A DNA stretch of 47,295 bases from NCBI GenBank assembly GCA_947168335.1, contig CAMVLM010000011.1, positions 1 through 47,295 of the forward strand, in the 5' to 3' direction. This DNA is from an uncultured Butyrivibrio sp. GTDB taxonomy: Bacteria > Bacillota > Clostridia > Lachnospirales > Lachnospiraceae. This document shows, in pieces, positions 30,595-34,318 of the stretch. The notes beneath the pieces are model-generated. The model did no database searches, was not told the origin of the DNA, and was given only the letters and a program-made list of their open reading frames with translations. How positions within the stretch are numbered: position 1 is the first letter of the stretch; each line of letters begins with the position of its first letter. Made by a program: the position numbers and the translations under genes.

Positions 30595-31980
30595 ATGTAT
30601 AAAATTGATTATGAGAAACCGGTAAACGTTTATTTTATAGGCATTGGCGGAGTTTCAATGAGCGGCCTTGCAAGGATTCTTGCTGACAGACATTTCAATG
30701 TCTGCGGCTCCGACAGATCCGAATCGGATGTGACAAAAGGTCTTGAAGAAGTGGGAATAAAAGTTTTCACTCCTCAGAAGGCTGATAACCTTGATGCAGC
30801 CGGCACCATCGATCTGGTTGTTTATACTGCCGCAATCCATCCCGACAATCCGGAGTTTGCTCTCGCAAAAGAGAGAAATATTCCCATGCTGACAAGAGCT
30901 GAGCTTCTTGGACAGATCATGACACATTACAGACTTCCCGTTGCTGTGGCAGGAACACATGGTAAGACAACTACCACTGCAATGGTCAGCAAGATCATGC
31001 TTGAAGCCGGAATGGATCCCACAATTTCCATCGGGGGGAACCTTCAGGATATCGGAGGAAATGTTCACATCGGAACCTCCGAATACTTTGTTACAGAGGC
31101 GTGCGAATACACAAACAGCTTCCTTAGCTTTTTCCCGGGAGTCGGAATCATACTTAATGTGGATGCAGACCATCTTGATTTCTTCAAGGATCTTGATGAC
31201 ATCCGCAACTCATTCCATAAGTTTGCACAGCTCATTCCCACCGGCGGAACACTTGTTGTAAATGGAGAAATCCCAAAGCTTGATGTACTCACCGAAGGCC
31301 TTACCTGCAAAATCGTAACCTATGGTTTTTCTGAAACAAATGATTACTATCCTACAAATATAAAATACGATTCTCTTGGAAACGCCAATTTCCATATTAA
31401 TAGAAAGAACGGCGAAAGTTTTGAAGTTGAGCTCAAGGTTCCCGGACATCACAACATCGGTAACGCACTGGCTGCAGCAGCTGCTGCTGACTGTTTTGAT
31501 ATAGGTGACAGCTTCATCAGATCAGGACTTGCTTCATTCACCGGAACTGACAGACGCTTCGAGTACAAGGGAACTGTTGACGGTCTTATTGTTGTTGATG
31601 ACTATGCTCATCATCCCACCGAGATTGCCGCTACTTTGGAAGCTGCAAAGAACTATCCTCACAAAACTTTATGGGTGGTTTTCCAGCCTCATACTTTCAC
31701 AAGAACCAAGGCTCTTATGGATGAATTTGCTCATGCTCTTCTTCCTGCAGATAAACTCATTATTGCTGACATCTATGCTGCAAGAGAGACAGATAATCTC
31801 GGCATAAGCTCAAGAACACTTAAAGAAAAAATCGAATCACTGGGACATGAATGTTTCTATTTCCCGTCATTTGATGAAATTGAAAAATTTCTTTTGCAAA
31901 ATTGCACGAAGGATGACATGTTGATAACAATGGGTGCCGGAGATGTGGTGAATATCGCAAACGATATAGTTGGAAAATAA
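30595..31980 (+). CDS. murC: UDP-N-acetylmuramate--L-alanine ligase
   Basis: A 461-residue enzyme adding the first residue of the peptidoglycan stem peptide. The Mur ligase parts are the UDP-binding IGIGGVSMSGLA (about 15-26), the ATP loop AGTHGKTTTTAM (about 119-130), the middle-domain block LNVDADHLDFF (about 186-196), and the C-terminal VVDDYAHHPTEI. ATG follows AGAGGA. A consensus promoter lies 50 bases upstream. It is followed at once by DnaA-box-like sequence and a terminator. Confidence 0.97.
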   Translation: MYKIDYEKPVNVYFIGIGGVSMSGLARILADRHFNVCGSDRSESDVTKGLEEVGIKVFTPQKADNLDAAGTIDLVVYTAAIHPDNPEFALAKERNIPMLTRAELLGQIMTHYRLPVAVAGTHGKTTTTAMVSKIMLEAGMDPTISIGGNLQDIGGNVHIGTSEYFVTEACEYTNSFLSFFPGVGIILNVDADHLDFFKDLDDIRNSFHKFAQLIPTGGTLVVNGEIPKLDVLTEGLTCKIVTYGFSETNDYYPTNIKYDSLGNANFHINRKNGESFEVELKVPGHHNIGNALAAAAAADCFDIGDSFIRSGLASFTGTDRRFEYKGTVDGLIVVDDYAHHPTEIAATLEAAKNYPHKTLWVVFQPHTFTRTKALMDEFAHALLPADKLIIADIYAARETDNLGISSRTLKEKIESLGHECFYFPSFDEIEKFLLQNCTKDDMLITMGAGDVVNIANDIVGK

Positions 31981-32142
31981 TTATCCACGCTATCCACTTT
32001 TTTATGTACTCAAATTTGATAAAATTCATGTGGATAACCGCCGCTATCCCGGGAACACGAAACTTTCCCGACGGGTAGCGGTTTCTTTTATTTTTTCATA
32101 AGATAATCCACGTTATCCACATTATCCACAAAACCATCCACA
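31981..32142. promoter_or_regulatory. cluster of DnaA-box-like 9-mers upstream of primosome genes
   Basis: Three perfect boxes: TGTGGATAA (32029-32037, minus orientation) and two abutting TTATCCACA (32113-32121, 32122-32130). One box with a single mismatch is TTATCCACG (31981-31989). Three with two mismatches: CTATCCACT (31990-31998), TAATCCACG (32104-32112), CCATCCACA (32134-32142). Within each group the boxes lie head to tail at a 9-base period, with one 3-base gap before the last. The terminator of murC sits between the groups. The cluster starts one base after the murC stop and ends about 50 bases before the promoter of the DnaD-like gene. It may serve DnaA-controlled transcription or DnaA titration. 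Confidence 0.8.
32041..32096 (+). terminator. terminator after murC
   Basis: CCGCTATCCCG pairs with CGGGTAGCGG (32072-32081) allowing a one-base bulge, with an inner GGGAA/TTCCC stem, followed by TTTCTTTTATTTTTT (32082-32096). Confidence 0.85.
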
Positions 32143-32188
32143 TAGGCCGCCCCTTAAAAAGCTCTGTTTTTTATCGTCAATTTACCCA

Positions 32189-32217
32189 TTTGCATAAAAA
32201 AAACATGATGCTATAAT
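32189..32217 (+). promoter_or_regulatory. promoter of the dnaD-like/dnaI-like/prs operon
   Basis: TATAAT (32212-32217) preceded by TG one base earlier forms an extended -10. TTTGCA (32189-32194) sits 17 bases upstream as a weak -35. The DnaA-box-like cluster ends about 47 bases upstream of this -35. Confidence 0.6.
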
Positions 32218-32252: not shown

Positions 32253-33281
32253 ATGATGGGGCGAGTTATTATAAATCAGAATTCAGTTATGTCTAATACT
32301 GAACTTTCCAATATATTTATTGATGAATATCTTTCTGATGCCAATGATGCGGAGATAAAGGTCTATCTTTATCTTCTTCGTATGATGTGCGCAGGTATGG
32401 CTACCAGCGTGTCAGATCTGGCTGATAAATTCAATTATACAGAGAAGGATGTACTTCGTGCGCTCTCATACTGGGAGAAGCAGGGTCTTATGTCCCTTGA
32501 GCATGATGCTGCCGGTCAGCTTACAGGAATCCATATGCAGGATATTACACCCAAGAAGAAGGCTTCTACAGCTACTCTTCACTGTGTTCCTGCGCCTTCA
32601 GCAGTTCAGGAACCTGCTCCTGTAAAGGAGACAAAGAAAAAAGCCGTTAAGCATACTGACAATCCTCAGATGCTTTTTGTGGCAGAGCAGTATTTTGGCA
32701 GAACTCTTAACACAAACGAGATCAAGACTATTTACTATATTCAGGACGATCTCGAATTCTCAGAGGATCTTATCGATTACCTTCTTCAGCACTGCGCTTC
32801 TGCAGGCAAGAAGGATTTTGATTACGTCAGAAAGACCGCGATCAACTGGCATGAAAAAGGAATATCTACTCCCGAGGCAGCACGCCTTGCAAGCAATGTT
32901 CACAAGAATGCTTACACTATCATGCGTGAGCTTGGAATGCAGAATGCTCCTACTCAGACAGAGTTGTCTTTTTTTGACCGCTGGCAGACAGAGTATGGTT
33001 TTTCTATGAGCATTATCACCGAGGCATGCCGCAGAACCGTTCTTCAGACTCAGAACAAACGTCTTCAGTACTGCGACAGCATTATCAGAAACTGGCACGA
33101 CAACGGTGTCCGCACAATGGACGATATCAAGAAGCTTGATGAGAAATTCGGCAAGATTAACAATGCTGCAAACACAGCAAAAGCCAATGAACCCATTAAG
33201 TTCAACAATATAAAGTTCAATAACTTTAAACAGAATGATTTTAATTTTGACAGTATTGAGGACCAGCTTCTTGATAACTGA
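32253..33281 (+). CDS. DnaD-domain replication initiation protein
   Basis: About 342 residues. The N-terminal 90 residues look like a winged-helix domain (AEIKVYLYLLRMM, then LADKFNYTEKDVLRALSYWE). After a Lys/Pro/Ala linker come two DnaD-type domains, each with the YxxxxxxxW signature: DYVRKTAINWHEKG and YCDSIIRNWHDNG. Such proteins remodel the origin and help load the helicase in low-G+C Gram-positive bacteria (roles of DnaD and DnaB of Bacillus). The start is ATG 32253, with GGTGAT 6 bases upstream. An in-frame GTG at 32238 lacks one. The next gene is the DnaI-like loader. The call is firm on domains, less so on which Bacillus protein it replaces. Confidence 0.9.
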   Translation: MMGRVIINQNSVMSNTELSNIFIDEYLSDANDAEIKVYLYLLRMMCAGMATSVSDLADKFNYTEKDVLRALSYWEKQGLMSLEHDAAGQLTGIHMQDITPKKKASTATLHCVPAPSAVQEPAPVKETKKKAVKHTDNPQMLFVAEQYFGRTLNTNEIKTIYYIQDDLEFSEDLIDYLLQHCASAGKKDFDYVRKTAINWHEKGISTPEAARLASNVHKNAYTIMRELGMQNAPTQTELSFFDRWQTEYGFSMSIITEACRRTVLQTQNKRLQYCDSIIRNWHDNGVRTMDDIKKLDEKFGKINNAANTAKANEPIKFNNIKFNNFKQNDFNFDSIEDQLLDN

Positions 33282-33343: not shown

Positions 33344-34318
33344 TTGGCACTGACAAATACCCAGTACGACGAGATCATGCATGATTATGAACGACGCAGG
33401 ACTTTTCATCGTAATGAACTAAACACCAGAATCAAGGAAGTCGAGGATCATGTTCCCGGATATCTGGATCTTTCTCAGTCGACAGGCAGTATAAGTGCTG
33501 ACTTTGGAAGACGCCTGCTTCTTGGGGAGAAGCTTAAGCGCGGAAAGCTGCACGAACTTCTGAGTGATGTAGCCAGTAAAAAGAAAAAGCTTCTTGCAGA
33601 GGCCGGATATCCCGATGACTATCTTGAGATGAAGTATGATTGTCCCATTTGTCATGACACAGGATATGTGGGCTCTGAAAAGTGTGTCTGCTTCAAACAG
33701 AGAATAATTGACAGGCTCTATGCCCAGTCCAACATCCGCAAGCTTACAGAAGCTGCCAATTTTGGCGTAATGTCTGATGAGTATTATTCAGGGGAAGATC
33801 TGGAGCGATTCAGAGGTGCGGTTCGAACTTCGAAAGATTTTATTAAGAATTTTGAAAGTTCCTACCCAAATTTACTCTTTTATGGTACAGTGGGTACTGG
33901 AAAATCGTTCCTGTCTGTTTGTATTGCCAAGGAACTCCTTGATACAGGCCATTCTGTGCTGTATTTCAGTGCTGTTTCCTTATTTTCACTTATACAGACA
34001 AACTCTTTCGATTTCAAGAAAACGGATGAACTCAATGCTCTTTATGAGGACTTATATAATACCGACCTGCTTATAATTGATGATCTTGGCACAGAGCATA
34101 TAACCAATACTTCGGTGCCCCAGCTGTTCAGCTGCATCAATGAAAGGCTTATACGGAACAAGTCCACAATTATTACGACCAATCTTACACCCGGTGAAAT
34201 AAAAGCCATGTATTCTGACAGAGTAGCTTCCAGAATAGCCAGCAATTATCACATTTGTAAGCTTACAGGCAATGACATCCGTATGTTAAAGAAAATGCAA
34301 TTCAAGAATGGAAAGTGA
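33344..34318 (+). CDS. dnaI: helicase loader, DnaI/DnaC-like AAA+ ATPase, TTG start
   Basis: A 324-residue ATPase that loads the replicative helicase. The N-terminal 95 residues are a charged, helical partner-binding region. A Cys cluster (Cys100, Cys103, Cys114, Cys116; CPICHDTG then KCVCF) probably binds zinc. Walker A is GTVGTGKS (181-188), Walker B is LLIIDDLG, and an arginine-finger region is in SDRVASRI. The start is TTG 33344, 7 bases after GGAGGAGGG. The nearby ATG at 33338 is in another frame and hits a stop at once. It is 62 bases after the DnaD-like gene and 12 before prs. Confidence 0.93.
   Translation: MALTNTQYDEIMHDYERRRTFHRNELNTRIKEVEDHVPGYLDLSQSTGSISADFGRRLLLGEKLKRGKLHELLSDVASKKKKLLAEAGYPDDYLEMKYDCPICHDTGYVGSEKCVCFKQRIIDRLYAQSNIRKLTEAANFGVMSDEYYSGEDLERFRGAVRTSKDFIKNFESSYPNLLFYGTVGTGKSFLSVCIAKELLDTGHSVLYFSAVSLFSLIQTNSFDFKKTDELNALYEDLYNTDLLIIDDLGTEHITNTSVPQLFSCINERLIRNKSTIITTNLTPGEIKAMYSDRVASRIASNYHICKLTGNDIRMLKKMQFKNGK

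What the first reader, a model, noticed from the sequence alone, without database searches (positions are those of the whole stretch)
31981..32142. Dense DnaA-box-like cluster between murC and primosome genes
Three perfect TTATCCACA boxes, one with a single mismatch and three with two mismatches lie within 162 bases, mostly head to tail at a strict 9-base period. That is much closer than usual oriC spacing. The cluster stands upstream of a DnaD-domain protein and a DnaI-like loader. There is no dnaA or dnaN here, so a second origin is unlikely. Feedback control of the loader genes by DnaA, or a titration site similar to datA or the Bacillus DnaA-box clusters, fits better.
Basis: partly seen in the sequence, partly recalled or inferred. 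Interest (0 to 1): 0.75.

Follow-up and report, generated by a model that had tools for sequence, protein, structure and literature searches.

The report
DnaA-box promoter array before helicase-loader genes
Just upstream of the genes that load the DNA-copying helicase, this Butyrivibrio-like bacterium and most of the relatives examined keep a tightly packed array of binding sites for the replication starter protein DnaA, usually at a set distance from the promoter, which suggests that DnaA itself controls the supply of the loaders.

Summary
The cluster is real: all seven boxes are where stated. In the available assembly only the region upstream of dnaA has as dense a group of exact boxes (my reading). 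The nearest named relative is a Butyrivibrio.

It is conserved. In 29 genera read (of 60 sampled), murC and dnaD adjoin in 29 and 23 have boxes exactly 9 bp apart between them. In 30 dnaA loci of the same family, close same-strand spacing is mostly 11 bp; one locus has a 9-bp pair.

The last array box ends 66-70 or 78-82 bp before the dnaD -10 in 55 of 60 thinned promoters (MAD 2 bp; control spacers MAD 15-24). In the genus sample 16 of 21 lie at 66-71 or 79. Pure titration would not need this.

No DnaA-trio run follows 80 murC/dnaD dimers, so it is not an origin. RNA covariation is absent.

Best reading: DnaA regulates dnaD-dnaI transcription from a zero-spacer, promoter-phased array, more likely as activator than repressor. 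A like array precedes hpf in 12 of 30 loci. DnaA binding and sign are not shown.

The parts
30595..31980 (+). murC (UDP-N-acetylmuramate-alanine ligase); its stop codon abuts the first DnaA box
   Evidence: Pfam Mur_ligase, Mur_ligase_M, Mur_ligase_C
31981..31998 (+). murC-proximal tandem pair TTATCCACG-CTATCCACT (9-bp period)
   Evidence: a pair at about +3/+12 after the murC stop in many relatives
32029..32037 (-). inverted exact DnaA box at about +50 after the murC stop
   Evidence: the inverted box starts at +49 to +53 in 85 of the 103 regions counted
32040..32082 (+). murC terminator-like hairpin, followed by a T-rich tract
   Evidence: RNA fold of 31978-32100, -33.9 kcal/mol, z -4.9; the simple terminator scan did not list it
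32104..32130 (+). promoter array of three boxes TAATCCACG-TTATCCACA-TTATCCACA with zero spacer (9-bp period)
32134..32142 (+). fourth, degenerate box CCATCCACA at a 12-bp step (3-bp spacer)
   Evidence: it ends 69 bp before TATAAT
32174..32195 (+). second conserved promoter block overlapping the -35 region; factor unknown
   Evidence: conserved at about -40 to -16 in 72 thinned promoters; the only match in the assembly with up to 3 mismatches
32209..32217 (+). extended -10 TGCTATAAT of the presumed dnaD promoter; TATAAT starts 81 bp after the last exact box
32253..33281 (+). dnaD-like primosome gene
   Evidence: Pfam DnaB_2 (PF07261), E 3.5e-40
33344..34318 (+). dnaI/dnaC-like helicase-loader ATPase gene
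   Evidence: Pfam IstB_IS21, Bac_DnaA, AAA

Best explanation
The cluster is the DnaA-binding control region of the dnaD-dnaI promoter. DnaA binds the zero-spacer array at 32104-32130 (extended by the weak box at 32134) and acts on RNA polymerase at the extended -10 promoter 32209-32217 from a fixed helical phase. This tunes the amount of helicase-loading proteins to the amount or nucleotide state of DnaA. Activation from upstream is the more likely sign (about 55%; repression about 30%). The murC-proximal pair and the inverted box form a second module before the murC terminator, possibly a roadblock or a partner for looping. Shown by computation: boxes, conservation, 9-bp geometry, set distance to the -10, absence of unwinding motifs. 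Inferred: that the -10 is used, that DnaA is the binder, that transcription changes, and its sign.
For: murC and dnaD adjoin in 124 of 129 loci (some near-duplicates); 98 of the 124 have a same-strand 9-bp pair. Pair distances in these regions: 9 bp 152, 12 bp 9, 18 bp 27, 21 bp 15, others <=4, against 5 at 9 bp in 924 kb of flanks. One-per-genus sample: 23 of 29. Array end to -10: 55 of 60 thinned promoters at 66-70 or 78-82 bp, MAD 2; inverted box to array MAD 24, -10 to gene start MAD 15. Genus sample: 13 of 21 at 66-71, 3 at 79. In shrunken regions that keep only murC-side boxes, a box still ends at 66-68 bp (L378-L380; L171, L178) or 80 bp (L126), but L374 gives 46. Box starts peak at -97/-96, -88/-87 and -79 to -75 from the -10. 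Order-wide exact dimer: 84 of 245 genomes, reversed control 2 hits by my reading; of 98 sites fetched 62 lie near murC/dnaD, 12 near hpf, 4 near dnaA/dnaN, 20 elsewhere.
Against: No binding or expression data. 26 of 124 and 6 of 29 regions lack a <=1-mismatch 9-bp pair. In several other families of the order murC and dnaD have almost no gap or no boxes. 5 of 60 and 5 of 21 promoters fall outside the distance classes. Only 85 of 124 regions had both a -10 and an array under the rules; 19 of 124 had no -10 under its pattern and 6 of 27 had none. The 66-70 and 78-82 classes partly reflect which degenerate box is counted as last. At hpf the array is much further upstream and not at a fixed distance outside the genus.
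Confidence: 0.7

Rival explanations
1. It is a titration or DnaA-inactivation site like E. coli datA or the Bacillus DnaA-box clusters: it soaks up DnaA after early duplication and delays re-initiation, without regulating dnaD.
For: Dense boxes outside oriC. dnaD lies about 0.10-0.29 Mb from dnaA in the five genomes of the family sample where I saw both on one contig: G580, G594, G603, G622, G624. Promoter sites may titrate as well (PMC12371093, passages).
Against: The set, phased distance to the dnaD -10 with free variation of other spacers has no role in titration. B. subtilis clusters act as a group and from various positions (PMC5295017, passages).
Confidence: 0.15
2. Another protein, not DnaA, reads the 9-bp repeats.
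For: The spacing differs from that at the family's own dnaA loci (9 bp here, mostly 11 bp there), so a different complex is conceivable.
Against: The repeat is the DnaA-box consensus, and the region upstream of this assembly's dnaA has the same 9-mer five times. Exact tandem dimers also occur at some dnaA/dnaN loci of the order (4 of 98 sites).
Confidence: 0.07
3. RNA-level control: the box near the murC stop and the inverted box pair in the transcript and modulate the murC terminator.
For: The fold of the region pairs them, and their distance is nearly fixed.
Against: No covariation in 101 distinct regions: 7.77 of 9 pairs against 7.74 with shuffled partners, reached by 29% of shuffles. It does not explain the downstream array.
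Confidence: 0.03
4. A second or ancient replication origin.
For: Tandem boxes resemble the double-stranded half of the basal unwinding system (PMC8287927, passages).
Against: dnaA-dnaN with its own boxes lies elsewhere. No run of four trios follows 80 exact dimers at murC/dnaD or 13 at hpf, against 2 of 6 at dnaA/dnaN; none follows the window array.
Confidence: 0.02

Closest known systems
DnaA-regulated promoters (dnaA autoregulation, E. coli nrdAB, B. subtilis ftsL; review PMC8203912, passages; B. subtilis sda is recalled)
   Same: DnaA boxes in the promoter region of replication- or cell-cycle-linked genes
   Different: the terms dnaD and dnaI occur 0 times in that review; boxes here form a zero-spacer array upstream at a set phase
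E. coli 'double DnaA box' (PMC11317965, passages)
   Same: closely spaced head-to-tail pair at regulated genes, proposed to bind a DnaA dimer
   Different: spacer there is 2-3 bp (period 11-12); here it is 0 bp (period 9)
Basal origin unwinding system, BUS (PMC6669920, PMC8287927, PMC10721633, passages)
   Same: tandem DnaA boxes as a platform for DnaA
   Different: no DnaA-trios, not at dnaA/dnaN
B. subtilis DnaA-box clusters and E. coli datA/DARS (PMC5295017, passages)
   Same: box clusters outside oriC
   Different: here the cluster is tied to one promoter, mostly at a set distance

Membership tests
DnaA-regulated promoter | DnaA boxes in the promoter region, conserved with the gene | tested here: met
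DnaA-regulated promoter | DnaA binds there in the cell | not testable with these tools
   needs ChIP or footprinting
DnaA-regulated promoter | expression responds to DnaA | not testable with these tools
   needs reporter or expression data
E. coli-type double DnaA box | two boxes separated by 2-3 bp | tested here: not met
   spacer is 0 bp in the core; one weak fourth box has a 3-bp spacer; 9 bp dominates in relatives
oriC / BUS | DnaA-trios next to the tandem boxes | tested here: not met
   0 of 80 murC/dnaD dimers and none at the window array
oriC / BUS | next to dnaA-dnaN | tested here: not met
   dnaA-dnaN on contig C1
Bacillus DnaA-box cluster / datA | several DnaA boxes outside oriC | tested here: met
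Bacillus DnaA-box cluster / datA | loss causes early or extra initiation | not testable with these tools
   needs a deletion strain
datA | IHF site beside the boxes | not tested
   no IHF search was made

The most novel reading that the evidence does not exclude
In these bacteria DnaA reads two spacings with different outcomes: steps of mostly 11 bp at oriC for initiation, and 9-bp zero-spacer arrays at promoters for transcription. The 9-bp form defines a small regulon that couples helicase-loader supply (dnaD-dnaI) to ribosome hibernation (hpf).
Probability: 0.3. Interest if true: 0.8.

Novelty: new variant of a known kind. Interest (0 to 1): 0.63.

Why it matters
If true, DnaA would set not only when the origin opens but also how much helicase loader is available, in a large bacterial family for which my one library search on DnaA boxes found only an unrelated plasmid paper. 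The split between 9-bp promoter arrays and mostly 11-bp spacing at dnaA loci makes a testable rule for how one protein tells a promoter from an origin. The hpf sites suggest a link between replication state and ribosome hibernation.

Tried and rejected
Second origin: rejected. RNA hairpin: no covariation. Chance cluster: rejected. Array tied to murC rather than dnaD: few informative cases. In L088 a partial murC match lies about 1 kb upstream without boxes after it, and the boxes stand before dnaD. In short regions only murC-side boxes remain, and a box still ends 66-68 or 80 bp before the -10 in L126, L171, L178 and L378-L380, but at 46 bp in L374. Class-wide: of 25 out-of-order dimer loci read (L278-L295, L300-L306) none matched the murC, dnaD, hpf or dnaA queries at E 1e-5, so the dnaD and hpf sites look order-specific; distant dnaD genes could be missed by phmmer, and the dimer hits that came without a locus were not read.

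Rows left out or weak. L080 (a weak dnaD-like match of G025 with other genes upstream and no tandem boxes) was left out of the 129 loci. The five of 129 not counted as adjoining are L088, L096, L099, L119 (cut by the contig end) and L176 (gene start set too late; boxes are there). One search holds near-identical pairs (for example L037/L105, L048/L125), thinned. Of 24 other-family genomes, 14 were fetched. Six dimer sites already known to lie at murC/dnaD, or in the genus (G000, G016, G056:C18, G059:C4, G042:C15, G049:C5), were not refetched, and neighbouring hits were merged by hand. In 'murC/dnaD' means that a dnaD or strong murC match lies within about 2 kb. Searches read 30, 30 and 29 loci: the best-scoring loci that the tool returned from 60 genera, not all 60; the three sets of genera differ. 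The oriC count used assumed gene starts; one search repeated it with matched starts and changed it little. The trio test read one strand; one search read both, and the count at dnaA/dnaN rose from 1 of 4 to 2 of 6.

Literature: search listings showed no title on DnaA control of dnaD, dnaI or hpf. The library lacks most subscription papers. I looked up one such paper (on DnaD and DnaB recruitment to DnaA-bound regions; not held) and did not look up the B. subtilis DnaA regulon papers cited; so 'not in print' is not claimed.

Full report
OBSERVATION. The region between murC (stop at 31980) and the dnaD-like gene (ATG at 32253) holds the seven boxes named in the finding at the stated places: three exact, one with one mismatch, three with two. 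Five lie in 9-bp runs. The fourth downstream box is at a 12-bp step, and one exact box is inverted and alone. The assembly has 69 exact boxes (46 for the reversed pattern), and three exact boxes within 102 bp are found only here and upstream of dnaA (my reading of the list). Random placement gives such a triple in 0.015% of 20,000 simulations.

SURROUNDINGS. Pfam confirms MurC, a DnaB_2/DnaD-type protein and an IstB/DnaA-like AAA+ protein. A strong hairpin with a T-rich tail follows murC at 32040-32082, though the simple terminator scan does not list it. Downstream of the array stands an extended -10, TGCTATAAT, at 32209-32217 with a weak -35. The 80 named relatives are mostly Butyrivibrio and other Lachnospiraceae, the nearest being Butyrivibrio sp. 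LC3010 (DnaI 75% identical).

CONSERVATION. In congeners the core mostly reads TAATCCACG-TTATCCACA-TTgTCCACA. Over 129 loci from the genus, the family and the order, murC and dnaD adjoin in 124, and 98 of these have at least one same-strand pair of boxes (each <=1 mismatch) exactly 9 bp apart. Pair distances in these regions are 9 bp 152 times, 12 bp 9 times, 18 bp 27 times, 21 bp 15 times and others at most 4 times; in 924 kb of flanking DNA 9 bp occurs 5 times. Because this set has near-duplicates, I repeated it on one genome per genus: 29 of 29 loci read adjoin and 23 of 29 have the 9-bp pair, with 47 pairs at 9 bp and 10 at 12 bp. A scan of 61 genomes of the genus (own included) for the dimer with up to one mismatch found it in 51. 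Compared by hand with the dnaD places, it lies just upstream of dnaD in 31 of the 37 genomes seen in both calls (not in G008, G015, G018, G023, G025, G033). Of 20 further sites fetched, 15 lie upstream of hpf.

UNBIASED LOOK. The exact dimer TTATCCACATTATCCACA was sought in 245 genomes of the order: 84 have it, and the reversed control has 2 hits by my reading of the listing. Of 98 sites fetched and classified by phmmer, 62 are near murC/dnaD, 12 near hpf, 4 near dnaA/dnaN and 20 elsewhere. In the class sample 39 of 293 genomes have a dimer, but none of 25 out-of-order loci read matches these genes.

GEOMETRY AGAINST ORIC. In 30 dnaA loci of the family (28 with at least 200 bp upstream; 154 boxes upstream of dnaA, 105 downstream) close same-strand spacings are 11 bp (15 upstream, 2 downstream), 12 bp (5 and 2) and 10 bp (4 and 1). 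A 9-bp pair occurs in 0 loci upstream and 1 downstream (nearly the same). E. coli also prefers 2-3-bp spacers, that is 11-12-bp steps (PMC11317965, passages). So the dnaD site uses a step that is rare at the family's own dnaA loci, although some dnaA/dnaN loci in other families of the order do have the exact 9-bp dimer, twice before a run of DnaA-trios (L186, L201).

PROMOTER PHASE. Anchored on the -10, box starts in 72 thinned promoters peak at -97/-96, -88/-87 and -79 to -75, and in only 1 of 72 does a box start between -55 and +4. The end of the last array box lies 66-70 bp (35) or 78-82 bp (20) before the -10 in 55 of 60 thinned promoters, MAD 2. In the same regions the inverted-box-to-array spacer has MAD 24 (55 promoters) and the -10-to-gene spacer MAD 15. 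These 60 come from 85 of 124 regions that had both a recognisable -10 and an array; 19 of 124 had no -10 under the pattern. In the genus sample 16 of 21 fall at 66-71 or 79; five do not (46, 49, 60, 145, 242), six regions had no recognisable -10 and two were too short. Where the region has shrunk and only murC-side boxes remain, a box ends at 66-68 bp (L378-L380, L171, L178) or 80 bp (L126), but at 46 bp in L374. In the window the distance is 81 bp from the last exact box and 69 bp from the degenerate fourth box. This constraint is the main reason to prefer transcriptional control over titration. The upstream position, the free core promoter and the weak -35 favour activation, but repression by a spreading DnaA filament is possible.

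ALTERNATIVES TESTED. RNA pairing between the murC-side box and the inverted box shows no covariation. DnaA-trios are absent. The inverted box starts +49 to +53 after the murC stop in 85 of 103 regions, so the murC-side module has a geometry of its own that remains unexplained. A block at about -40 to -16 overlapping the -35 is strongly conserved and has one match in the assembly; its factor is unknown.

LITERATURE. The passages shown of the DnaA transcription review (PMC8203912), the B. subtilis binding study (PMC4447404) and two replication reviews (PMC5295017; PMC13220808) do not mention DnaA control of dnaD or dnaI. DnaD is known to act on DnaA binding in B. subtilis (PMC4447404 and titles in its reference list), which would close a loop if the present reading is right; that is inference.

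VERDICT. A conserved, mostly promoter-phased DnaA-box array that most likely puts dnaD-dnaI under DnaA control: a new variant of the DnaA-regulated promoter, with a spacing unlike that usual at the family's oriC.

Noticed in passing
L059 2413-2504 (same genome, contig C24, upstream of hpf): A second DnaA-box group with a 9-bp pair precedes the ribosome hibernation gene hpf. In congeners a lone box mostly stands about 52 bp before the pair, and often TTATACACG plus 3 bp just before it; in the family 12 of 30 loci read, own genome included, have a 9-bp pair there.
   Followed up: partly
window 32174-32195: Strongly conserved block overlapping the -35 of the presumed dnaD promoter, with one match in the assembly; no factor assigned.
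   Followed up: partly
window 31981-32037: The inverted box keeps a nearly fixed place about +50 after the murC stop, while its distance to the downstream array varies.
   Followed up: partly
L287, L300, L302-L306 (other families of the class): Exact tandem dimers lie near a gene that by eye looks like the replicative helicase, and in several also near a FAD-dependent enzyme.
   Followed up: no
L278-L282 and L207: Exact dimers stand upstream of what by eye is an amino-acid ABC transporter binding protein; in L278-L282 a TTATACACA- or TTATGCACA-like box precedes them by 3 bp.
   Followed up: no
L186 about 1976-2020 and L201 about 2024 (minus strand): Two dnaA/dnaN loci in other families of the order have the zero-spacer dimer followed by GCCC(C) and a run of trios, the layout of a basal unwinding system.
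   Followed up: no
G580, G594, G603, G622, G624: dnaD lies about 0.10-0.29 Mb from dnaA where both are on one contig.
   Followed up: no
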